From IMG/VR virus record IMGVR_UViG_3300020419_000072, positions 1-27,397 of that record: a DNA stretch of 27,397 bases; one strand, 5' to 3'. This document shows, piece after piece, positions 15,238 through 27,154 of this stretch. Within the stretch, counting starts at the first letter, position 1. Each line of letters begins with the position of its first letter. The notes beneath the pieces are model-generated. The model was not told the DNA's origin, did not search any database, and saw nothing but the letters and a program-made list of their open reading frames with translations. The position numbers were made by a program, and so were the translations under genes. The stretch is from a virus.

Positions 15238-15249
15238 GAGTTTAATATG
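15235..15249 (+). other. In-frame amber junction between two ejection-protein genes
   Basis: TAG at 15235-15237 ends the 209-aa protein. The codons GAG TTT AAT and then ATG at 15247 follow in the same reading frame, so amber read-through would yield one protein of about 1410 residues. The TAG is also the first three bases of a TAGGAG stop/Shine-Dalgarno, which argues for ordinary reinitiation instead. Confidence 0.7.
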
Positions 15250-18200
15250 AAATATAAAGCCACTCAAAAAGACCGCTATGGTAATATGAAATCTCTAGAA
15301 ATTACAATGGATAATCAGCTACAAGTTCCTCCTATGACTTCAGCTGTACCAGAGTATGATCATCCTGGAGAACCTAGAGGAACTGATACTGTACCAGCTT
15401 GGCTTACTCCTGGCGAATTTGTTGTTAATAAAGAAGCAACAGATATGTATGGACCATTAATTAAAGAGATGAACGATCAAGGTAGAGAAGTTCAGGATAT
15501 GAAAAAAGATCCTATGTATGCTAAAAAAGGTTCATCAGTTGAAGATAGAAAAATTAAAATTTATAAACATCTTGCTAATGAGTATGGGTTACCTGATAAT
15601 CAAGTAGCTGCAATTATGGGACAAATAGCTCATGAATCTGCAGGTTCATTTGATCCTTTTAAATTAGAAGATAAAGTGCCTGAGTATAAACGAGGTGAAG
15701 GTTTATTTCAAAATACTCCTGGCGCTACTAGAATGCTAAAGCCTTATCATGAGTATCTTATTAAAGAAGGTATTATTCCAAAAGAAAGTATATTAATTGG
15801 AGGCTCAGATTTATTAAAAGATAAAATGACAGAAGATCAGGCAATAAAATCTCAGTTAGATTTCTTTATGAAAAGCTTTATGGATTTTGGAGAGACTACA
15901 TTTGATAAAGATGGTAATCCTATAACAAGTGTATTAGATACAACAAATCCTGTAACAGCGCATGGTTGGAAGAAAGCAAATTTAATGAGAGATACTTTTG
16001 CAGATACAGATTTGCGTACATTAGCAGTTAAGACAGATTCAAATCCTTCATTAACAGGCAGACTTACTTCTTTTATAAATGTGCCTAATGATGCACTTGA
16101 TGCAAGAAATACTGCTACCGAAAAAATGTTAAAAGAAATTAATTCAGGAAAGTATAGTGATTATAAATATCAAGAAGACTTAGGAAATATGCCAACTATG
16201 ATTGGTACATTACCTCAAGATCCTTCTGAAATACCAGGAGGTTTGATTGTTAAAGATATTCCCAGACCTGACTCTGACAGTAAGTCTATTGGGCGTACAG
16301 TTATGGATGCAGCTCAAAAAGGTATTGCAGATACTATTGATACAATAAAATCTATTCCAAGTAATTTTACAAAGGGAGCTGAAGAAACTAAAGCAAGATT
16401 TAATAAAAGAAAAGAATTGTTTAAAAAACCAAATGATAAAGCAACAGCTGAATCAGCGTTTATGTTAGAACCTGGTGGTTTAATTCCAGGTATTGATTTT
16501 CCATCAGAGCCTAGGGATAACGAAGAAAACTTTATTAAAAGAATGTTAGGTTATGATGATAGAACAAGTAGTCCAACACCTGTTACTGATCCAGGATTTC
16601 AAGATTATGGTGAAATGATACCTAGATTTCCAATTGATTATGATCCTCAGGGACTAGGTGGTATGCCTGAAATGGAAAAAATAGATCCTACCTTTCAAAA
16701 TATATTAAGGCAGACTGTGCCAGCTCCTGTGCCTTCTTACGATCCTCAAGGATTAGGTGGAGACGAATTTATTCCAGAGGTAACACCAAATAATATGCTA
16801 ATGAATCCTAATGCAATGGATGACTTAGGTCGAAATAATGACATGACATCTATAATGGGTGGTGATAAGAGTCTTGCAGATGCATTTGCACCTACACAAA
16901 TTCCTGAACCATTTGGAATGGACGATCCTAATCTTATGAAAGCTATGGAAGAATCATTTACTAATGAGCAAGCTTATGATGGAACACCACCAGAAGGTAT
17001 AGGTATGGGAGTGCCTGAACCTACATATACAAGTATGTATGATAAGATGGTTGAAGATGAATTAACTGGTTCACCTGAATATGAGATACCTGAAGTTATG
17101 AGTATGGATCCTCAAGGAATAGGTGGAGACGAATTTATTCCAGCAGCAATAAACAAAAGCGCTAAGCCTGATATGTCTGATATAAATATACTAGATAACT
17201 TAACTTTAGAGCAATCACCTGGCGCTATTAATTCTCAAATAGAAATGTTAGAAAATAATTTAGCTACTAAACTTAATGATCTTAAAACAATTATGGCAAA
17301 CGAACCAGGAGATACAGAAGTTACTAATCTTTATAGAGAAGAAATAAAACGTTTAGAAAATGAGATAGGAGATAAAAAGAAAACACAAGCTCTTATTGAT
17401 TATAAGAAAAAATATTCACAAGAATTTGATGAACGTAAAGCAAAAGAAAAAGAACAAGCTAAAGTTACAAGTCTTCAAGAAACTATTACTTCTAGCGACA
17501 CAACTCAAACAGAAAAAAATGATGCTGCTAAACAATTAAAACAAATGAATATTAAAACACCAGAAGAAATAGCAGCAGAAAAAGAAAAAACAAAGCTAGC
17601 AGCTCTGGCTGGTAAGGTTGATGCTAATCTTGAAGCTGCTATGACTAATGATCTTACTTCAGCTGAAGGTCAAGCAACTACAACTAGTGCATCTCAGAAC
17701 GAACCTGAAGTAAGTAAAGCTAGGAAGATGTTTGATTTCTTGTTTGGTGATATGATTGATAGTGGTGAAATAGGTAGAGCTATTGGAGTGTACTTAGGGT
17801 CTAGAGCTTTAGGTTATGATCATGGTAGTAGTATTGGTTATGTTGCTAAACAATATCTTAAAAGAGTTGATGCACAAAATGCTGCATGGGATAAATGGTC
17901 ACGTGAAAATATGACTAAGTTTACACCAGCATCTATGGCTAAGTTTAAAAGAACTAGGAATCCAAATGATCTTATACCAATAGGTAATCCAATTAGATCT
18001 ACTGGTAAAAGACAAACGTACTATCATCCTACACTAGGTAAGGGACAGGCTTTTGAATTTAAAGTTGCTAATTCTAATGGTGATGATACAACTTACTGGT
18101 CATTCGATCAATCAGGTAAAAATCAAGATCTAGTATTAGGGCCAGGTTGGACTAGCGAAAATGTATTAGATGTATCAACTGAAGAAATTAATTTGATTGA

Positions 18201-18840
18201 GAAAATGTTATCAGGCTTTCAAAGTAAATATGATAAAGTAACTACAGGTAGTAAAGCTAAAGGTAATCAGAAAACTAAATACTTTAGTTCAATGAGTAGT
18301 ACACCTGGAGTTGTACCTGCGGCAGCAGCAGCTGAGGTTGCTCAGTGGTTGCATGAAAGAGGTATACCACCAGGTAAGTTTAAAGAACCTATTGCTGAAG
18401 CTTATAAGTTATTAATAGAACATAATAAACAAAGAGCTGCGGAGGGTGAAGATAGTCAAATCCAAAATTCTTTATTACCTTTCTTACAAGAGTCTACAAT
18501 TAAATTAAGATTAGAAGATATGTCTTATATAGATGATAACGGTAAGAAGCAACCAATACCATCACCTATACAAGGAAAGATAGGAGATGAGATAAGAACT
18601 ATGGATACTAAAGTATTAATGAAACTTGAAAGAGAAATTTCTACATTCTTTCCTGCAGGTACTGAAGATAGGTTCTGGGCACAAGCTGCTAAAGCTTGGA
18701 TGAATAGTTCTGAAACTAGAAAAGAATTTGAAGAAGCTGCAAAGAAGAAAGTAAACAGTGAATACACACCATTCTCATTATTTGCACAAGCTTTAATAGG
18801 AAACGAGCTTCAAAAAGCTGCGGCTAATGCTACTCAATAG
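15247..18840 (+). CDS. Large ejection protein with N-terminal lysozyme-like domain
   Basis: A 1197-aa protein. Residues 44-80 carry the tape-measure-like motif GTDTVPAWLTPGEFVV. Residues about 102-215 fit the phage tail lysozyme (Phage_lysozyme2) pattern: VAAIMGQIAHESAG with E130 as likely catalytic acid, then RGEGLFQNTPGATRML. Such a domain would open peptidoglycan during entry, as T7 gp16 does. A long, probably disordered, Pro/Met/Gly-rich linker holds three DPQG repeats (residues 466, 499, 621). Residues about 660-800 are a charged coiled coil. The C-terminal third (from KMFDFLFGDMIDSGEIG) is unassigned. It is followed by the 1443-aa ejection protein with a TAGGAG junction. Virion role inferred from order and domains. 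Confidence 0.7.
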   Translation: MKYKATQKDRYGNMKSLEITMDNQLQVPPMTSAVPEYDHPGEPRGTDTVPAWLTPGEFVVNKEATDMYGPLIKEMNDQGREVQDMKKDPMYAKKGSSVEDRKIKIYKHLANEYGLPDNQVAAIMGQIAHESAGSFDPFKLEDKVPEYKRGEGLFQNTPGATRMLKPYHEYLIKEGIIPKESILIGGSDLLKDKMTEDQAIKSQLDFFMKSFMDFGETTFDKDGNPITSVLDTTNPVTAHGWKKANLMRDTFADTDLRTLAVKTDSNPSLTGRLTSFINVPNDALDARNTATEKMLKEINSGKYSDYKYQEDLGNMPTMIGTLPQDPSEIPGGLIVKDIPRPDSDSKSIGRTVMDAAQKGIADTIDTIKSIPSNFTKGAEETKARFNKRKELFKKPNDKATAESAFMLEPGGLIPGIDFPSEPRDNEENFIKRMLGYDDRTSSPTPVTDPGFQDYGEMIPRFPIDYDPQGLGGMPEMEKIDPTFQNILRQTVPAPVPSYDPQGLGGDEFIPEVTPNNMLMNPNAMDDLGRNNDMTSIMGGDKSLADAFAPTQIPEPFGMDDPNLMKAMEESFTNEQAYDGTPPEGIGMGVPEPTYTSMYDKMVEDELTGSPEYEIPEVMSMDPQGIGGDEFIPAAINKSAKPDMSDINILDNLTLEQSPGAINSQIEMLENNLATKLNDLKTIMANEPGDTEVTNLYREEIKRLENEIGDKKKTQALIDYKKKYSQEFDERKAKEKEQAKVTSLQETITSSDTTQTEKNDAAKQLKQMNIKTPEEIAAEKEKTKLAALAGKVDANLEAAMTNDLTSAEGQATTTSASQNEPEVSKARKMFDFLFGDMIDSGEIGRAIGVYLGSRALGYDHGSSIGYVAKQYLKRVDAQNAAWDKWSRENMTKFTPASMAKFKRTRNPNDLIPIGNPIRSTGKRQTYYHPTLGKGQAFEFKVANSNGDDTTYWSFDQSGKNQDLVLGPGWTSENVLDVSTEEINLIEKMLSGFQSKYDKVTTGSKAKGNQKTKYFSSMSSTPGVVPAAAAAEVAQWLHERGIPPGKFKEPIAEAYKLLIEHNKQRAAEGEDSQIQNSLLPFLQESTIKLRLEDMSYIDDNGKKQPIPSPIQGKIGDEIRTMDTKVLMKLEREISTFFPAGTEDRFWAQAAKAWMNSSETRKEFEEAAKKKVNSEYTPFSLFAQALIGNELQKAAANATQ
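15550..15891 (+). other. Lysozyme-like domain of the ejection protein
   Basis: Encodes residues about 102-215. The AAI-x-G-x-x-x-HES segment, with Glu130 before Ser, and the following G-x-G-L-F-Q block match the catalytic region of Phage_lysozyme2 enzymes. Domain edges are estimates. Confidence 0.6.
16642..17143 (+). repeat. Three copies of a DPQG(L/I)GG repeat in the linker
   Basis: Copies start at 16642, 16741 and 17107. The second and third are 36 of 37 bases identical (encoding DPQG-L/I-GGDEFIP); the first matches only over its DPQGLGG part. High DNA identity among copies separated by about 370 bases suggests recent duplication or conversion, or a functional short linear motif. Confidence 0.7.
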
Positions 18841-18848
18841 GAGTTTAT

Positions 18849-21800
18849 ATGGTTGATTTTAGTATGCTTCCTAAGCTAGACTTACCTACAATTGAGTTAC
18901 CTAAAACCATTTCAGGAAGCGGTGGGCATACATTTATTGATGGTGATACATTAATGAATGAGGAAGGTAACTTACTTAGAATACAAGGATTAAGTGCACC
19001 AGAAATTCAAAGGCTTATGGATTCTGGTTATATGAAACCTGGTACGCCTGGTGGATTAGAAGCTTATAAACAAATTGAAAAGCTTGCAGAAGAGTTTGGT
19101 TATAATAACGTACAGTATCTTACAAATGATGATGGCTCACCTATGATGGATGCTACAGGTTCAAGGCAGCTTGTAAGGTTAGTTGATGATAAAGGTAGAG
19201 ACTTTACTGAAACACTTTCTCGTTATAATATTAATAAGTTAAGTAAATTTAGTACTAATGAAGAGATAGATAAGTATCGTTTAGGTATGGTTAAAAGATC
19301 TACTAGAAATATTAGAGATCCTTTAAATGAATATGAGAAGTCTTCTTTAATATTAAATGATGCTATTAAATCTGAGCAGTGGTATGATACTCAATTTGCA
19401 AAGGCTGCGTTTAATGAACAAGAACTTGCAAGATTAAATGCTGATAGACAACCTGGAGAATCATTAGCTGCTTTTGCTTTTAGAAAAAAAGAAGCTGCTA
19501 AGTATTCTAAAGTAAGAGTACAGCAAAGAAATACAGATAGAGATATAGAAAACAAATCACTTCATCCGTGGTCTGAAAGTTTTGATGTAGGATGGCAAGG
19601 AGTTATTGAAAGTTTATATGGTGCTGCTGAATTACTTGGTTATAAAACTGGATTTAATTGGTTAGAAAACGTAGGTGAACGAGGTATTAAAAGACAAAGA
19701 GAATATCTTTCAACAAAACCTGATTTAAAGCTAAGTGTTTTAAAACCTGTGCTAGATCCTGATGGTAATGTTATTACTAATGAATGGGATATAAATGGCT
19801 TAGGTGAATTCTTTGAATACATGGGTAACATGACAGCTGTTTCACTTCCTTATATGGGTGTTACTGCTGCAGGTGCTTTAACTGCACCTATTGGTGGTAT
19901 GGCTGCACCAGCTTCTATGTATACAGGTATGACTTGGAATGATATGGAAGGAGAGAACAAAGATAAGAGTGCAACATTAGCAGTAGCTGGTGGTCTTACA
20001 ATGACTGTTCTTGATAGACTAGGTATTAAATTGTTAATGGGTAATGCTACTGGCACTTTATTAAGTAGTAAATACCGTAATGAAATGGTTAAAGGTTTTA
20101 TAAAAAAGAATCCTGGTTCAACTGAGCAACAAGCAAGAGCTGCTATAGCACAGATGACTAGGAAAGCTGCAGCTGAACTTACAGGAGATGCTGCAAAAGT
20201 TGCTAAAGAACAATTAAAGTATGGTAATATTATTAGATCTTTTGCTGCTAGAGCTGGTGTAGGTTTTGGTACAGAATCTATAACAGAAGTAGGTCAAGAG
20301 CTTGCACAATACCTAGCATCAACTGTTGGTAGTGATAAAGAATTTGATTCAGTTGAATTACATGAACGATTAATTAATGCATTTGTAGCTGGTGGTACTT
20401 TAGGTTCTGCATTTTCAGTACCTGGAACTGCATATGATGTAGGTCAATGGACTGATATAAATGTTAGGCAGCTACCAAACCAAGAAAAATTAATGTCACA
20501 AGAACAGAAGTGGCATGAAGAAGAAAATAAAGATTTGCATGATAGATATGTAGAAGGAGATCAAATACCTGCAGGAAAAAATATAGGTGATATAAAACCT
20601 GGTGGTAAATTTGCAAAAGGTAAATCTAAAAGTATTGAAGATAACTTTAATAAGTTTAGAAAAGATGCTTTAAAAAGAGATGCACAATTTAGAAGAAGAC
20701 AAAGAGCACAGACAACTCAAATACAAACTCTTGAAAATCAATTAGCAGATCCTGGAATACCTGCAAATGAAAAAGCTATTATACAAATTAGACTTAATGA
20801 ACTACAAGCATTGCAAGCTAGAGAGGGCGCAGACAGAACTTCATTTCAAGATAAAGTAGAAGCTGGTAAGAAACAATATAAAGCTAGGGATTATTGGGAA
20901 ACATTTAAAGATGCTGCTAATAATTTACCTGTGTTATGGAGAGGAGGTCCAAGGCATTTCTTTTGGAAGGATTCTTTTGGAGCACCTACTCTTAGAAAAA
21001 TGGCAGGCGGTATAGGATCTTACTTAAGAGCCGTGCATACAGGACAAACTTTAGAAAACTTTAAACAAAATAAACTAACTGAATTTAAAAATGACTTAGG
21101 TAGAGTTACATTTAAAGATAAAGATGGTAATGATGTTCAAGAAGAATTTAGTGAAGCTGCTGTAGCAAAAGCATTAGGCTATAAGAATATTAATAAGATA
21201 AAAATATCTGAAGACATATATGAATTCTATAGATTAATAAAGCAAACACCATGGCGTGATATTCAATGGGATACTTTACCTGCTAAGTTTCAAGCAGATA
21301 GAGTTTTCTATGAGAGTATAGCTAGAAGATTTAAATTTGCTGGTGATAGTATGTATGAGCAGCAAAAGAATGCTAGAACTAAATTTGATGATGGCTCATC
21401 GACTGGTAAAAAATGGACAGCAGGTAGGATTGAAAACTATCTTGGTACATTTAGATCTATAGATAAAGCAATGGTTGAAAAGAATAGGGAACAGTTTATA
21501 AAAGATCTACAAGAAGAAAAGAATTATACTTATGAAGAAGCAGTTGCATTAGCAGATGCTATATTAAATAATAATGATATTGTAGATGAAGTATCTTTGA
21601 TGGACTTTAATGTAGGAAGAGGAATACATATACCTGGTCAGCTTAAGAAAAGAACTTTAAACATGGCAGAGAATGAAGTATTAAATAAATATTTAGAAAA
21701 AGATTTGTTTATAAATATTTCTAATGCAGCTAAAGCCGCAGCAAGATATATTACTTATCAAAAATATGTTGGTGATAATGCAGAAATTTTTAATGAAGCA

Positions 21801-23180
21801 TTAGAACAAACGATAGGTAATAAAGAATATACTAGAGAGAAAGCAAACTTTGCTGCTGCGTTTATTCAAGATTATTTAGATGGAGAATCAGGTAACTATA
21901 AGAAGATAAGTAATCCTCAGCTAGCTAACCTGCAAAGAAACCTATTAGTATGGACTACTATGGCTGGCTTACCTATGGCTACTATATCTTCATTCGTAGA
22001 ATACATGATGATACTTAGAGCGCTAAGTCCTGAACAAATAAATGATGTGCTAAAGTTTACTGCTAAAGAATTTGCAAATGCAATATGGGAAACCATGACA
22101 ACAGCTACACCTAATATGAAATTAGCTACATCAACTGAAGGACAGCTGGCTAAAGAAAGAAGGCAAGCTCGTTTAAAAAGATTAGGTTACTTTACTTGGG
22201 ATACAGGTGCAGCTCAAACTACAGGTGCTACTGAGAATACATTTGCTTCAAGATATTTATTAGATAAGTATTTTAGAATAATCTTATTACAACAATGGAC
22301 TGATATAACACGTAATATTCGTGGTGCTATTGCTGATGATTTTATTATGGATCATTTAAGAATTATAAAAAATCAAAGAGATGGTGATACTTTATATACT
22401 AATGAAGTACAAGAATCAGAAGAGCAGTTAAGAAACCTAGGTATAAGAGTTGAAGAACTTTTAGAAATAGATAACTTACCTTTTGATAAGCCAGCTGATA
22501 TGTCAAGAGAAGATCACTTACTTATATTAAGAGATGGTAATAGAAGACTAGATGAGATATTTAGAAATGCTGAATTTAATTTTATTAATGAAGCTATTGC
22601 ATTACCAGGTACTGCAAACAGACCATTGTTTTATCAGAATCCGCACTTAGCATTGTTCACACAGTTCCAGGGTTTTATATCTACATTCTCTGCAACTATT
22701 ATACCAAGACTATGGGGTGACTATATTAAAAGAGGAACACCAGCATTGAAGTATAATGCTTTTGCTATCATGACTACAATGATTGCACTTGGTTTTGTTT
22801 CACAATACTTAAAAGATTTATTAAAGTATGGTCAAGGAAGTCCTTACCTAGATCAAATGGAAAAGTTTCAAAGAGGTGTAGGTTCATCTGGTATGTTAGG
22901 TGTAGCTGAAAGACCATTAAACTTTTTCTTTCCTATATATGAAACATCTTCTAGTAATATAATTGAAGCTATCTTTGATACAGGTACGGGAGAAGCTGCT
23001 GCTTTATCTAACTTATCAAGAGCAGCTACTGGTGCAGGTCAAGTATTGAAAGGATCATTAATGGAAGATGCTAGTATAGAACCAGGTGTATATAAGTTAC
23101 TTAAGACTACTCCAGGTGTAGGACCGTTTAATCAGTTTAATAGATGGACTGCCGCAAAAATCTCAGCAATATTTGAATAA
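18849..23180 (+). CDS. Giant ejection protein with N-terminal nuclease-like (SNase) fold
   Basis: A 1443-aa internal virion protein in the place of T7 gp16. Residues 27-135 align by eye with staphylococcal nuclease: FIDGDTL (D33 = D21), LLRIQGLSAPE (R44 = R35, E52 = E43) and DATGSRQLVRLVDDKGRDFT near R106 (= R87); D40 is replaced by S49 and T41 by A50. The middle has several hydrophobic stretches (SLPYMGVTAAGALTAPIGGM; ATLAVAGGLTMTVL; AFVAGGTLGSAF) compatible with a membrane channel, and a basic coiled coil at about 610-690. The C-terminal part has a conserved-looking block FINEAIALPGTANRPLFY, then LALFTQFQGFISTFSATI. Function as DNA-ejection channel is inference from order and length. Confidence 0.7.
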   Translation: MVDFSMLPKLDLPTIELPKTISGSGGHTFIDGDTLMNEEGNLLRIQGLSAPEIQRLMDSGYMKPGTPGGLEAYKQIEKLAEEFGYNNVQYLTNDDGSPMMDATGSRQLVRLVDDKGRDFTETLSRYNINKLSKFSTNEEIDKYRLGMVKRSTRNIRDPLNEYEKSSLILNDAIKSEQWYDTQFAKAAFNEQELARLNADRQPGESLAAFAFRKKEAAKYSKVRVQQRNTDRDIENKSLHPWSESFDVGWQGVIESLYGAAELLGYKTGFNWLENVGERGIKRQREYLSTKPDLKLSVLKPVLDPDGNVITNEWDINGLGEFFEYMGNMTAVSLPYMGVTAAGALTAPIGGMAAPASMYTGMTWNDMEGENKDKSATLAVAGGLTMTVLDRLGIKLLMGNATGTLLSSKYRNEMVKGFIKKNPGSTEQQARAAIAQMTRKAAAELTGDAAKVAKEQLKYGNIIRSFAARAGVGFGTESITEVGQELAQYLASTVGSDKEFDSVELHERLINAFVAGGTLGSAFSVPGTAYDVGQWTDINVRQLPNQEKLMSQEQKWHEEENKDLHDRYVEGDQIPAGKNIGDIKPGGKFAKGKSKSIEDNFNKFRKDALKRDAQFRRRQRAQTTQIQTLENQLADPGIPANEKAIIQIRLNELQALQAREGADRTSFQDKVEAGKKQYKARDYWETFKDAANNLPVLWRGGPRHFFWKDSFGAPTLRKMAGGIGSYLRAVHTGQTLENFKQNKLTEFKNDLGRVTFKDKDGNDVQEEFSEAAVAKALGYKNINKIKISEDIYEFYRLIKQTPWRDIQWDTLPAKFQADRVFYESIARRFKFAGDSMYEQQKNARTKFDDGSSTGKKWTAGRIENYLGTFRSIDKAMVEKNREQFIKDLQEEKNYTYEEAVALADAILNNNDIVDEVSLMDFNVGRGIHIPGQLKKRTLNMAENEVLNKYLEKDLFINISNAAKAAARYITYQKYVGDNAEIFNEALEQTIGNKEYTREKANFAAAFIQDYLDGESGNYKKISNPQLANLQRNLLVWTTMAGLPMATISSFVEYMMILRALSPEQINDVLKFTAKEFANAIWETMTTATPNMKLATSTEGQLAKERRQARLKRLGYFTWDTGAAQTTGATENTFASRYLLDKYFRIILLQQWTDITRNIRGAIADDFIMDHLRIIKNQRDGDTLYTNEVQESEEQLRNLGIRVEELLEIDNLPFDKPADMSREDHLLILRDGNRRLDEIFRNAEFNFINEAIALPGTANRPLFYQNPHLALFTQFQGFISTFSATIIPRLWGDYIKRGTPALKYNAFAIMTTMIALGFVSQYLKDLLKYGQGSPYLDQMEKFQRGVGSSGMLGVAERPLNFFFPIYETSSSNIIEAIFDTGTGEAAALSNLSRAATGAGQVLKGSLMEDASIEPGVYKLLKTTPGVGPFNQFNRWTAAKISAIFE
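18927..19253 (+). other. Degenerate staphylococcal nuclease-like domain
   Basis: Residues 27-135 of the ejection protein. The order DGDT, R-x-x-G-x-x-A-PE, G-x-EAYKQIEKL, D-x-x-G-S-R and L-x-R-x-x-I-x-K-L-x-K follows the SNase fold end to end. Two of the calcium-binding positions are changed (Asp40 to Ser, Thr41 to Ala), so activity is doubtful. Confidence 0.5.
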
Positions 23181-23191
23181 GGAGAATATAA

Positions 23192-26100
23192 ATGGTACAA
23201 TTTGTACAACAACAAACTGCTAATACTACACCTTCAGATGTATTGCAAGAAAGAAAACGCTTACAAGGATTAGCAAAAAATGTAGGGCTAGTAACTACAG
23301 ATGATAGAATTCAAAGGCGACAATCAGATGCTGCAGTTGAATATAAAAATCCTCAAGAAGAATTATTAAATGAAAACTTAGCAGCACTAGAACAATCTCA
23401 AGATCTTCCTGATGATGCTACACCTGAAGAGTTAGTTAAGATTATGACTAGCCCTACTTATTCTGCAACAATAGATGAAAATGCTGAGCTACAAAAAGAA
23501 ATAAGAAAAACAAATAAGATGGTACCTAAAGTAGCAATGGCTGCAGCTAACTTAGGATTTAAAGGAATAAATACATTAGGTGGTCTTTACAATGTAGCTA
23601 AAGCAACAGAAGCAGTTGGTAAAGAAGGAAGACCATTTACTACAGCGCTAGCAAGAATTGGTAAGACTGCTGCATTAGCTCAAGACTCTATTAATTTGCA
23701 GGTAACTAAAGCACAAAAGAAAATACTATTAGAGACTGGTAGTTGGAAAAATTCTTTCAATGCAAAACAAATAGGTAATGTTGAACCTAAAGCTGGTATA
23801 GAAGGTGGTGTTACATTTGGAACTTTAGAATCTGTTACGCCATCGGTATATATAGGCGATAGAACTATGCCTATAAATCAAACTAATATTTTATTAGATA
23901 CTGTAGGAGCTGCATCTTTAAATGAGAAGGGAAGTATTATTGTAGACCCTGAGTTCTTTAATATCATGGCAGTAAATGCTGAGGACGCTTTCATTTCAGC
24001 AATGTATGCTACTGATCAAGAGCAACAGTCACCTGATATTTTAAATGATATGCAGGATGCAGAGCAACAAGAAAAATCTTATGTAATTAAAAAAGCACAG
24101 GGACTTGAAAGGTTAGGTAAAAATATTTATAGAGAATATAAACAAACTCGTGCAGCTATAGATCAATTACCTACTGATGCTTATATGCAAGAAATTGATA
24201 ATATAAATCCCGGTGTATTTACTATGATAGGTGGTATGGCTAAAGAGTTTTATGCTTCTGCTAACTCAGATATTATGAAAAGAAATAATCCTGATGCTAC
24301 TAAAAAAGAACCTGTATTATATTTTATTAATGAAGAAGGTGCTAGAATATTTGAAGATATGTATAGAATATACTCAGGATTGTTTGCTGCAAAAGAAGTT
24401 AAGCCTCAACCAGGATCTACTAGTGATGGGATTATTGGTGGAGAAGGTGGTCAAATTACAAAGCTAATGACTACACGTATGGCAAAAGATATAGGTGATC
24501 CTGATCAAGCATTTGAAGCAATGAAAAATCAGAATGAAGTAAAAATAAAAAATGATACACAAAGAACTAAGCTAAGTACTTTAATGTTTATGTTAGCTGT
24601 AGGAAATGCTGGAACACCTAAGTCTCAAGGAGATGCAGCTACTAATCAACAACTACCACCTGAGTTTGATTACTTTGAAGACGGACCTAATGGTAGAAAT
24701 TATTATGCTGATGTATTTAAAATTGGTGGTGAAAAGTTTAAAGCATTACAAAATGAAAAGCTTACACTAATTCAAAATGTAAAAGACTTAAGAGCTGCTG
24801 GTGAACCAGAAGCTGTGATTAGTGCGGCACAAGCAATAGCAGATAACTATAGACCTAAAACTATTCTTAGACTTGAAAGAGAAAAAGCTATTAATCTACA
24901 AGAAGCTATACTAAGATATGATAATAAAGAAAATCATTTAACATATGCTTTACAATTATTAACTGGTAGAATGCATGCTCAACAAACTCTTTATAATCCT
25001 CAAGCTCATAAGCAAGTAAGAGGTGTAATAGGTGGTGGTAATGTATTTCAATATGTACCTGGAACTAATAGCGCTGCTGAATTAAATTTTAAACAAGGTA
25101 CAGTTGCTAATTTATTTGAGGATCCTAAAGTTATAGACCCTGCTACTCAACAAAAAATGGGTGAAAGCTTTAAAAAGATGGCAGGCTTTCGTATGCCTAA
25201 AGAATTAAGGTTAAGTACATTTGAAAACCAGCAAGCAACTAAAGGTACTGGTGGATTATGGGATCAGTATGTAGCATGGGGAGAAGAACTTAAAAAACTT
25301 ACTGCTACTTTTACTTTAGCAGAATCAAAATCATATTTAACACAACTTAAAAATGCTAAAAATAATTCTGAAGTTGCACAAATTAAACAAGTATTAACTC
25401 AAAGATTTGGTAATGATCCTATGAGTCCTAGATTAAAAGCTTACTTAGCTGAGTTTGAACAGGATGGTATTAGGCAGGGCGATTACTTAATGGCTTTATA
25501 TGATTATGATACTGTTACTACAAAAAATAAAACAGCATCTGAGCCTATTAAGTTTAATGATACACAGCAATGGGAGAAGGATGGTAAGACACATGGACCT
25601 GCAACTATGGGTATGCAGTTTGGTAGTGTTAGTATGGCTAAGCGATCTGATATGATAATGGAAGTTCCTTATGCAGAGAAGATTCAATCAGGTGAATATA
25701 AAGATTTAAGAGATGCTATGTCTGATACTATGATTAATTCATTAGATAGAATTGTTAACAGTGGTAGTTTAAATAATCTTGGTAGTAATACAGCACCAGT
25801 TTTAAAAGAAATCTTGGATTTATCTATAGCTGATAGAGAAAACTTTTTAAAAAAATCACCTATGACTATGGGGTATGGACAAGATATAAAATCATTAAGA
25901 AGTCATGTTCAAAAAACTGTAGCACAGAATGCTAAGATTAGAAAGTTAATTGAAGATAATGGGCTTGGTTCAAAAAGAACTATAGACTGGCTTCATACAA
26001 TGATGGTAGACTCTGTATTTCAAAACATGGATGCTGATGCTATTCAAACTATGGATACTTTAAAATCTGTAGCTTGGCAATCTGTATTATTAAATCAAAT

Positions 26101-27154
26101 GATTACTATTAGACAACCCAATGGATTAAAAGCATATGCTGGTGGTGTATCATATACAGAAGACACTGATAAATTAAATTGGAAAGCACCTACTGGTACG
26201 AAGATGCGTGAAAAAGAAATACCTTCATCTTTATCAAATGATAAAATTACTCCAGGCACAATAACAGAATCAGGTTTAGTAGCAGAAACAACTTATAAAG
26301 GTACGGCTTCAGCTCAAGCATTAAGAAAAAGACAAGGTGATACTTATGAAGTAGGAGGATGGACTGTTAGTAGAATACTTGCTGAATTAATACAAGCATA
26401 CGATGGTAGTATGGCAGCAGGTGTATTTAGTAATACAAAGTATAATCATAATGGAGGACCACCTTTAGAAACCGGAAACTGGAATAGAATTAAAGCTGTT
26501 GCTAAAGCTAACGGTTCTACTAATACTTTTGTATTACAAAACTTTGATGCGTTTATAGGTGACTCCGGAAGTATAGGTATTGTTGGAGAAGTAGCAAATG
26601 ATATACATAAAAAAGATATCTTAAATGAAAATGCTGCGGCTAAAGTTTTTAATTGGTACCATACAGAAAGAGTTGCTAAGTTAAAAGCATTATCAGAAGA
26701 TGAATCAACTTATGTTATGTTACAAGGTGGTACTTATTATTCGGGAGATGATGCGCAGTTCATGAAGATAGCTGAAATGTTTTCAGGTGAAAGGTATGTA
26801 CCTAAAGGTAAGGGTAAAGCACCTTATAAATCTTTAACTAAATGGCTTAAGAAAAATATACATATGCCATGGGAAAGAGTTAACAGTAAAGAAAGCTTAG
26901 CTGAATGGGATAAAAGAAAGTTTAATGCATCCTGGAAAATGGCTACATCTATTCAAGAAGATTTAAAAGAAACTCTTGAAGCAATGAATAAAGATAATAT
27001 ATTAACTGGTATACAAATACATCAGATAATACAAACTATAAATAAGTATTTAAACTTAGATGCTGCTGTTGCTTTAGCTGAAAAGAATATAAATAAAGGA
27101 AAGCAAACTATAGCTAAGATGATGCCTGGAGCAACAAACAATATCGACTTTTAA
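23192..27154 (+). CDS. Single-subunit RNA polymerase (T7/N4 family) at the end of the virion cassette; candidate virion RNAP
   Basis: A 1320-aa protein. From about residue 560 it carries the single-subunit RNA polymerase motifs in order: TGRMHAQQTLYNPQ (R593 = T7 R425 of the T/DxxGR motif), KDGKTHGPATMGMQ (D797 = D537, motif A), KKSPMTMGYG (K887 = K631, Y895 = Y639, motif B), LNWKAPTG (T7 has VHWVTPDG), YDGSM (T7 QDGSH) and NFDAFIGD (D1119 = D812, motif C). Both metal-binding Asp and the catalytic Lys and Tyr are present; T7 H811 and H784 are replaced. About 560 N-terminal residues (one hydrophobic patch near 112-135) and 130 at the C-terminus are extra relative to T7. The TAAGGAG junction couples it to the ejection protein, as expected for a packaged polymerase like N4 gp50. 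It would transcribe early genes after injection. Confidence 0.85.
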   Translation: MVQFVQQQTANTTPSDVLQERKRLQGLAKNVGLVTTDDRIQRRQSDAAVEYKNPQEELLNENLAALEQSQDLPDDATPEELVKIMTSPTYSATIDENAELQKEIRKTNKMVPKVAMAAANLGFKGINTLGGLYNVAKATEAVGKEGRPFTTALARIGKTAALAQDSINLQVTKAQKKILLETGSWKNSFNAKQIGNVEPKAGIEGGVTFGTLESVTPSVYIGDRTMPINQTNILLDTVGAASLNEKGSIIVDPEFFNIMAVNAEDAFISAMYATDQEQQSPDILNDMQDAEQQEKSYVIKKAQGLERLGKNIYREYKQTRAAIDQLPTDAYMQEIDNINPGVFTMIGGMAKEFYASANSDIMKRNNPDATKKEPVLYFINEEGARIFEDMYRIYSGLFAAKEVKPQPGSTSDGIIGGEGGQITKLMTTRMAKDIGDPDQAFEAMKNQNEVKIKNDTQRTKLSTLMFMLAVGNAGTPKSQGDAATNQQLPPEFDYFEDGPNGRNYYADVFKIGGEKFKALQNEKLTLIQNVKDLRAAGEPEAVISAAQAIADNYRPKTILRLEREKAINLQEAILRYDNKENHLTYALQLLTGRMHAQQTLYNPQAHKQVRGVIGGGNVFQYVPGTNSAAELNFKQGTVANLFEDPKVIDPATQQKMGESFKKMAGFRMPKELRLSTFENQQATKGTGGLWDQYVAWGEELKKLTATFTLAESKSYLTQLKNAKNNSEVAQIKQVLTQRFGNDPMSPRLKAYLAEFEQDGIRQGDYLMALYDYDTVTTKNKTASEPIKFNDTQQWEKDGKTHGPATMGMQFGSVSMAKRSDMIMEVPYAEKIQSGEYKDLRDAMSDTMINSLDRIVNSGSLNNLGSNTAPVLKEILDLSIADRENFLKKSPMTMGYGQDIKSLRSHVQKTVAQNAKIRKLIEDNGLGSKRTIDWLHTMMVDSVFQNMDADAIQTMDTLKSVAWQSVLLNQMITIRQPNGLKAYAGGVSYTEDTDKLNWKAPTGTKMREKEIPSSLSNDKITPGTITESGLVAETTYKGTASAQALRKRQGDTYEVGGWTVSRILAELIQAYDGSMAAGVFSNTKYNHNGGPPLETGNWNRIKAVAKANGSTNTFVLQNFDAFIGDSGSIGIVGEVANDIHKKDILNENAAAKVFNWYHTERVAKLKALSEDESTYVMLQGGTYYSGDDAQFMKIAEMFSGERYVPKGKGKAPYKSLTKWLKKNIHMPWERVNSKESLAEWDKRKFNASWKMATSIQEDLKETLEAMNKDNILTGIQIHQIIQTINKYLNLDAAVALAEKNINKGKQTIAKMMPGATNNIDF

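What the first reader, a model, noticed from the sequence alone, without database searches (positions are those of the whole stretch)
18927..19253. SNase-like domain at the tip of a giant ejection protein, with metal ligands altered
Seen: an end-to-end pattern match to staphylococcal nuclease over residues 27-135 with D21, R35, E43 and probably R87 equivalents kept but D40 to Ser and T41 to Ala. Known: D21, D40 and T41 help bind the calcium in SNase. Inference: either a nuclease with changed metal use, or a former nuclease reused to bind DNA or peptidoglycan-linked polymer at the front of the ejected complex. It could also trim host DNA or the leading phage DNA end.
Basis: partly seen in the sequence, partly recalled or inferred. 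Interest (0 to 1): 0.72.

Follow-up and report, generated by a model that had tools for sequence, protein, structure and literature searches.

The report
Nuclease domain on phage ejection protein
A group of uncultured marine phages, and one cultured relative, carry a staphylococcal-nuclease-type domain with nearly all its cutting residues intact at the front of a giant protein that is probably injected into the host with the phage DNA, so the particle may bring its own DNA-cutting enzyme.

Summary
Residues 27-135 of the 1443-aa ORF 18849-23180 form an SNase domain. Top Foldseek hits of two AlphaFold models are all staphylococcal nuclease (best E 1.4e-5; VIA-align Z 10.2 over 117 residues). Profile comparison with natural SNases gives E 8e-7, far above 100 shuffles. 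Across 19 homologues only eight columns are invariant, and six are SNase active-site positions: D19, D21, T22, R35, E43, R87. This fits a working nuclease better than a dead one. The Asp40-to-Ser change is real but not fixed: Ser in the window's clade and one other row, Asp, Glu or Asn elsewhere. Ala at position 41 occurs in a natural SNase. The host protein is a full-length homologue of gp34 of the cultured Roseobacter podovirus CRP-7; its core, without the SNase domain, matches particle proteins of LUZ24-like phages. I read it as a divergent, probably active SNase carried on a podovirus ejection protein. Virion location, activity, metal and target are inferred. One precedent exists: an SNase domain on the BtI1 prophage baseplate hub (PMC2147016). 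The spatial 'tip' claim is untested.

The parts
18849..23180 (+). ORF of 1443 aa, probable ejection (internal virion) protein: N-terminal SNase domain plus large core
   Evidence: full-length collinear homologue of CRP-7 gp34, hhalign E 6.7e-26
18927..19253 (+). SNase-like domain, residues 27-135 (the finding)
   Evidence: Foldseek, VIA-align and hhalign against SNase
18915..19298 (+). Residues 23-150, the stretch that superposes on SNase residues 11-136
   Evidence: Z 10.2, rmsd 3.4, 117 aligned
18939..18950 (+). D31-G-D33-T34 motif (SNase D19, D21, T22)
   Evidence: D31, D33, T34 invariant in 19 homologues
18978..18980 (+). R44 (SNase catalytic R35)
   Evidence: invariant
18993..18995 (+). 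S49, codon AGT (SNase calcium ligand D40)
   Evidence: S/D/E/N across homologues
18996..18998 (+). A50 (SNase T41)
   Evidence: A, M or S in homologues; Ala also in natural SNase L062
19002..19004 (+). E52 (SNase catalytic E43)
   Evidence: invariant
19164..19166 (+). R106 (SNase catalytic R87)
   Evidence: invariant
21636..22013 (+). Core stretch matching PHROG 6958, virion structural protein
   Evidence: E 9.2e-19, residues 930-1055; residues 843-1342 match the phage tf particle protein
15247..18840 (+). Upstream giant ORF (1197 aa) with Phage_lysozyme2 domain, probable partner entry protein
   Evidence: PF18013 E 1.9e-8, above its cut-off; syntenic with CRP-7 gp35
23192..27154 (+). Downstream giant ORF (1320 aa), third of the set, function not identified
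   Evidence: same order as CRP-7 gp33; no family hit

Best explanation
The domain is a divergent but catalytically competent SNase-type nuclease fused to the N-terminus of a podovirus ejection protein. Shown: the SNase fold (by prediction), invariance of the catalytic Asp/Arg/Glu/Arg set across a diverse family, homology of the whole protein to CRP-7 gp34, and homology of its core to annotated virion proteins. Inferred: the protein is packed in the capsid and ejected ahead of or with the DNA, as T7 gp15/gp16 are, so a few nuclease molecules are delivered at entry. In the envelope or cytoplasm the domain would then hydrolyse nucleic acid with a divalent metal held mainly by D31/D33 and backbone, Ser49 giving a weaker or water-mediated contact. 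The most likely target is host DNA (or RNA), supplying nucleotides and disabling the host early; this last step is a guess, about 40% given that the domain is active.
For: Fold: AF2 pLDDT 80; all 50 listed Foldseek pdb hits are SNase, best E 1.4e-5, probability 1.00; VIA-align Z 10.2. An earlier model from a shallower alignment agreed. Sequence: hhalign against 11 natural SNases, E 8e-7, with shuffled controls; relative L072 hits NCBIfam thermonuclease NucI at E 6.9e-5 and CRP-7 gp34 at E 3e-12. Activity: invariant columns in 19 homologues are D31, D33, T34, R44, E52, R106 plus two Gly; overlap with eight SNase active-site positions has P about 2e-8 on a uniform model. In nearly all comparisons the domain is as well or better conserved than residues 136-330 and much better than 561-800. 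Position 40 is Asp in L040, L070, L072, L074 and the CRP-7 group, Glu in L064 and L066. Entry protein: PHROG 6958, LUZ24-like and KPP25 structural proteins, CRP-7 synteny, lysozyme domain in the preceding gene; CRP-7 is a short-tailed phage (PMC6918029).
Against: No activity data for any member. Position 40 lacks a carboxylate in the window clade. The domain is net acidic (12 K/R, 17 D/E over residues 27-135), unlike staphylococcal nuclease, which is basic (own knowledge). PF00565 does not detect any tested member. Virion presence is shown only by annotation of distant homologues; the phage tf bands were assigned by molecular weight. A metal-dependent nuclease packed with DNA in calcium-rich seawater needs a restraint that I cannot identify.
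Confidence: 0.72

Rival explanations
1. A former SNase that lost catalysis with Asp40 and now only binds DNA, RNA or an envelope polymer at the front of the ejected complex.
For: Asp40 replaced by Ser in 10 of 19 representative rows; acidic domain; binding-only SNase domains exist in Tudor-SN proteins (own knowledge).
Against: R35, E43, R87 and D21 equivalents never vary in 19 homologues down to about 25% identity; a dead enzyme would be expected to lose some. Asp or Glu at position 40 is kept in eight rows.
Confidence: 0.15
2. Active nuclease whose job is in the periplasm: it works where calcium is high, cutting competing or extracellular DNA near the entry site, and is silent in the calcium-poor cytosol, so spares the phage genome.
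For: SNases are calcium enzymes and the cytosol is calcium-poor (own knowledge); the N-terminal enzyme domain of T7 gp16 acts on the envelope (PMC11440229); the neighbouring gene carries a lysozyme domain.
Against: No substrate evidence; the phage's own DNA passes the same place; metal preference of the Ser40 form is unknown.
Confidence: 0.2
3. A processing nuclease for phage DNA: it trims the leading genome end or frees DNA from the ejection channel.
For: It travels with the DNA if it is an ejection protein (inference).
Against: SNases are largely non-specific (own knowledge); nothing in the sequence suggests end specificity; not tested here.
Confidence: 0.06
4. The SNase match is a convergent OB-fold or chance motif with no common descent.
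For: Pfam and NCBIfam miss the window domain.
Against: Profile score far above shuffles; SNase is the only fold among the top hits; intermediate L072 reaches a thermonuclease model.
Confidence: 0.02

Closest known systems
Staphylococcal nuclease (micrococcal nuclease, thermonuclease; PF00565)
   Same: Fold; D19, D21, T22, R35, E43, R87 equivalents kept
   Different: Asp40 is Ser in the window; longer beta-hairpin before R87 (LTNxDGSPxxD); acidic; part of a 1443-aa protein; below Pfam detection
Roseobacter phage CRP-7 gp34 (MK613349, annotated hypothetical protein)
   Same: Collinear over its length, same N-terminal SNase domain, same gene order
   Different: About 24-29% identity; keeps Asp at position 40 and the DPYGR motif
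LUZ24-like particle protein (phage tf gp51; PHROG 6958)
   Same: Core of the protein
   Different: No SNase domain at its N-terminus; 1021 aa
BtI1 prophage homologue of phage 0305phi8-36 gp147 (baseplate hub)
   Same: N-terminal SNase domain on a virion entry protein, where a relative carries a peptidoglycan-cutting domain (PMC2147016)
   Different: Bacillus contractile-tail lineage, hub protein, not a podovirus ejection protein
T7 gp16
   Same: Giant ejection protein with an N-terminal enzyme domain (PMC11440229)
   Different: The enzyme is a lytic transglycosylase; no sequence homology was shown here

Membership tests
SNase-like fold superfamily | SNase OB-fold barrel with following helices | tested here: met
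   predicted structure
SNase-like fold superfamily | Profile-level sequence similarity to natural SNases | tested here: met
   E 8e-7 and shuffled controls
SNase-like fold superfamily | Catalytic D21, R35, E43, R87 | tested here: met
   all invariant
Canonical Ca-dependent thermonuclease (PF00565) | Asp40 as calcium ligand | tested here: not met
   S49 in window; Asp in several homologues
Canonical Ca-dependent thermonuclease (PF00565) | Score over Pfam's curated cut-off | tested here: not met
   no PF00565 match in window or tested homologues
Canonical Ca-dependent thermonuclease (PF00565) | Calcium-dependent cleavage of DNA and RNA | not testable with these tools
   needs an assay
CRP-7 gp34 / PHROG 6958 virion-protein family | Homology of the core | tested here: met
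CRP-7 gp34 / PHROG 6958 virion-protein family | Conserved gene order with two other giant proteins | tested here: met
Podovirus ejection protein (T7 gp15/gp16 type) | Packed inside the capsid and ejected | not testable with these tools
   inferred from position and homology
Podovirus ejection protein (T7 gp15/gp16 type) | Sequence match to a solved ejection protein | tested here: inconclusive
   no PDB sequence match for the core profile; its fold was not predicted

The most novel reading that the evidence does not exclude
A widespread marine podovirus lineage carries a virion-borne nuclease whose metal site is tuned at one ligand (Ser, Asp, Glu or Asn at position 40) so that it stays silent beside packaged DNA in calcium-rich seawater and switches on only at or after entry.
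Probability: 0.15. Interest if true: 0.75.

Novelty: new variant of a known kind. Interest (0 to 1): 0.52.

Why it matters
If active, these ocean phages would inject a nuclease with their DNA, giving an immediate route to host-genome breakdown or early takeover, and raising a sharp question of how the particle keeps its own genome safe. The natural series of Ser, Asp, Glu and Asn at a textbook metal ligand, with all catalytic residues fixed, is also a ready-made set for testing what Asp40 does. A cultured member with the same domain (CRP-7 gp34) makes both testable.

Tried and rejected
Pfam and NCBIfam on the window domain and close homologues gave nothing useful. A phmmer search of PDB sequences with the window domain gave only chance hits. 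tblastn of the domain alone in phage records gave CRP-7 only at E 5, made credible later by position, profile and the L072 intermediate. Sequence searches of solved structures with the core gave no ejection protein. The CRP-7, tf and polyvalent-protein papers do not mention an SNase domain on this protein in the passages searched. Considered and set aside: chance motif; pseudogene (open frames in almost all members; L020 has one in-frame stop); 'T41A as damage' (Ala occurs in a natural SNase). Searches for papers on Asp40 mutants found none usable.

Full report
WHAT WAS CLAIMED. The ORF is 18849-23180 (+), 1443 aa, between two other giant ORFs. The window is a 27.4-kb virus record.

IS IT SNASE? 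Library HMMs miss it and phmmer against PDB finds only chance hits. Profiles and folds find it clearly. An AlphaFold2 model from 17 homologous rows (mean pLDDT 66) has staphylococcal nuclease as its 29 best Foldseek hits (E 1.1e-4; VIA-align Z 8.7 over 123 residues). A second model from 19 more diverse rows reached pLDDT 80; its 50 listed Foldseek hits are all SNase (best E 1.4e-5, the Ca/pdTp complex 1SNC), with VIA-align Z 10.2, rmsd 3.4 over 117 residues, model 23-150 on SNase 11-136. TM-scores are moderate (0.44 query, 0.56 target), so this is a divergent SNase, not a close copy. The profile of window-type plus CRP-7-type rows against 11 natural SNases from phages and plasmids gives hhalign E 8.1e-7; with the SNase side trimmed to the domain the score is 48.4, compared with a maximum of 17.2 in 100 column shuffles and 15.5 for the reversed profile. 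The window-type rows alone score 36.0 against a shuffle maximum of 18.4. One full-length relative, L072, matches NCBIfam thermonuclease NucI over residues 18-132 at E 6.9e-5, though far below that equivalog's curated cut-off.

THE FAMILY. Scans of IMG/VR found window-type relatives at 42-99% identity in the domain and more distant full-length ones at 32-51% to L048. One cultured phage carries it: Roseobacter podovirus CRP-7 (MK613349), gp34, 1368 aa, 'hypothetical protein'. The window protein and gp34 are collinear by profile alignment (E 6.7e-26, columns 4-1270 on 20-1266). L072 joins them by plain tblastn to gp34 (E 3e-12). The best BFVD structural hit is a 1368-aa viral protein, the same length as gp34 (A0A646QXC0, E 1.9e-8); I did not verify that it is gp34.

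ACTIVE SITE. In 19 representative homologues (A8) only eight columns are invariant: D31, D33, T34, R44, E52, G69, R106 and G116. Six are the equivalents of SNase D19, D21, T22, R35, E43 and R87. Taking eight SNase active-site positions among 180, an overlap of six has P about 1.8e-8 under a uniform model, which ignores that structural positions are also conserved. This pattern is what a working enzyme leaves.

POSITION 40. The window has Ser49 (codon AGT). Ser is present throughout a nine-row clade that holds the window, and again in L046; L048 uses TCT where the others use AGY. Asp is found in L040 (GLDAPET), L070, L072, L074 and the CRP-7 group, Glu in L064 and L066, Asn in L073. On a tree of the core with the domain left out, the Ser label needs at least two changes and the whole set five; some long branches make details unsure. 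L040 (Asp) and L046 (Ser) are sisters (98/99). So the change is not fixed across the family, and an oxygen-bearing side chain is kept at this site in all forms. Position 41 is A, M or S in the family, and Ala occurs in a natural SNase (L062). From memory, loss of Asp40 in SNase is much less damaging than loss of D21, R35, E43 or R87; I could not confirm this in the held library.

THE HOST PROTEIN. Residues 930-1055 match PHROG 6958, 'virion structural protein' (E 9e-19), and residues 843-1342 match the particle protein of the LUZ24-like phage tf, with KPP25-type structural proteins also hit. By profile, tf gp51 aligns with the window family only from column 260 onward (E 3.9e-13), so the SNase domain is an N-terminal element of the marine lineage that tf lacks. 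The preceding giant ORF has a Phage_lysozyme2 domain (PF18013, E 1.9e-8). Gene order follows CRP-7: ribonucleotide reductase, structural protein, tail fibre, then three giant proteins. CRP-7 is short-tailed (PMC6918029). This makes 'ejection protein' the natural reading, but capsid location and ejection are inferred; the tf virion bands were assigned by molecular weight (PMC3517423).

HOW IT MIGHT WORK. T7 gp16 carries an N-terminal peptidoglycan-cutting domain and is ejected ahead of the DNA to build a channel across the envelope (PMC11440229); P22 ejection proteins behave similarly (PMC8402733). I propose the same delivery here with a nuclease in the N-terminal slot. Target choice is open. 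Host DNA or RNA is my first choice because early breakdown frees nucleotides and the phage encodes ribonucleotide reductase; calcium dependence would instead favour the periplasm. The restraint that stops it cutting packaged DNA is unknown. A weaker metal site in the Ser forms could be part of it, but the Asp forms must manage too.

PRECEDENT AND NOVELTY. Hardies and co-workers reported an N-terminal SNase-related domain on the BtI1 homologue of the phage 0305phi8-36 baseplate hub protein, in the place of a peptidoglycan-cutting domain, and said its purpose was not obvious (PMC2147016). So SNase decorating a virion entry protein has been seen once in a contractile-tail lineage. I found no report of it on podovirus ejection proteins in the papers searched; absence from this library is weak evidence. 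Verdict: new variant of a known kind.

LIMITS. No solved structure or assay; the domain is net acidic; the core's fold was not predicted; the E-values from hhalign are for single comparisons.

Noticed in passing
L076:4501-5010: A relative of the L006/L014 type lies on a 15.6-kb contig binned into a Candidatus Pelagibacter MAG (NZIO01000029.1), hinting at a SAR11 host for that branch, or mis-binning.
   Followed up: no
L020:1866-1868: One homologue has an in-frame TAA just after the SNase domain while the frame continues; sequencing error or truncated allele.
   Followed up: no
window 19119-19151: The hairpin before R106 carries a strongly conserved LTNxDGSPxxD stretch in the window-type clade, replaced in CRP-7 and L072 by the short SNase-like DPYGR/DPHGR form; it could supply extra polar ligands.
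   Followed up: no
window 20529-21248: Residues 561-800 of the giant protein are far more variable (20-59% identity) than the SNase domain and the C-terminal core.
   Followed up: no
BFVD A7KUR9_2 (structural hit, not in the window): Second-best viral fold hit (E 3.3e-3) is a segment of another large, unnamed viral protein; possible further SNase domain on a large protein.
   Followed up: partly
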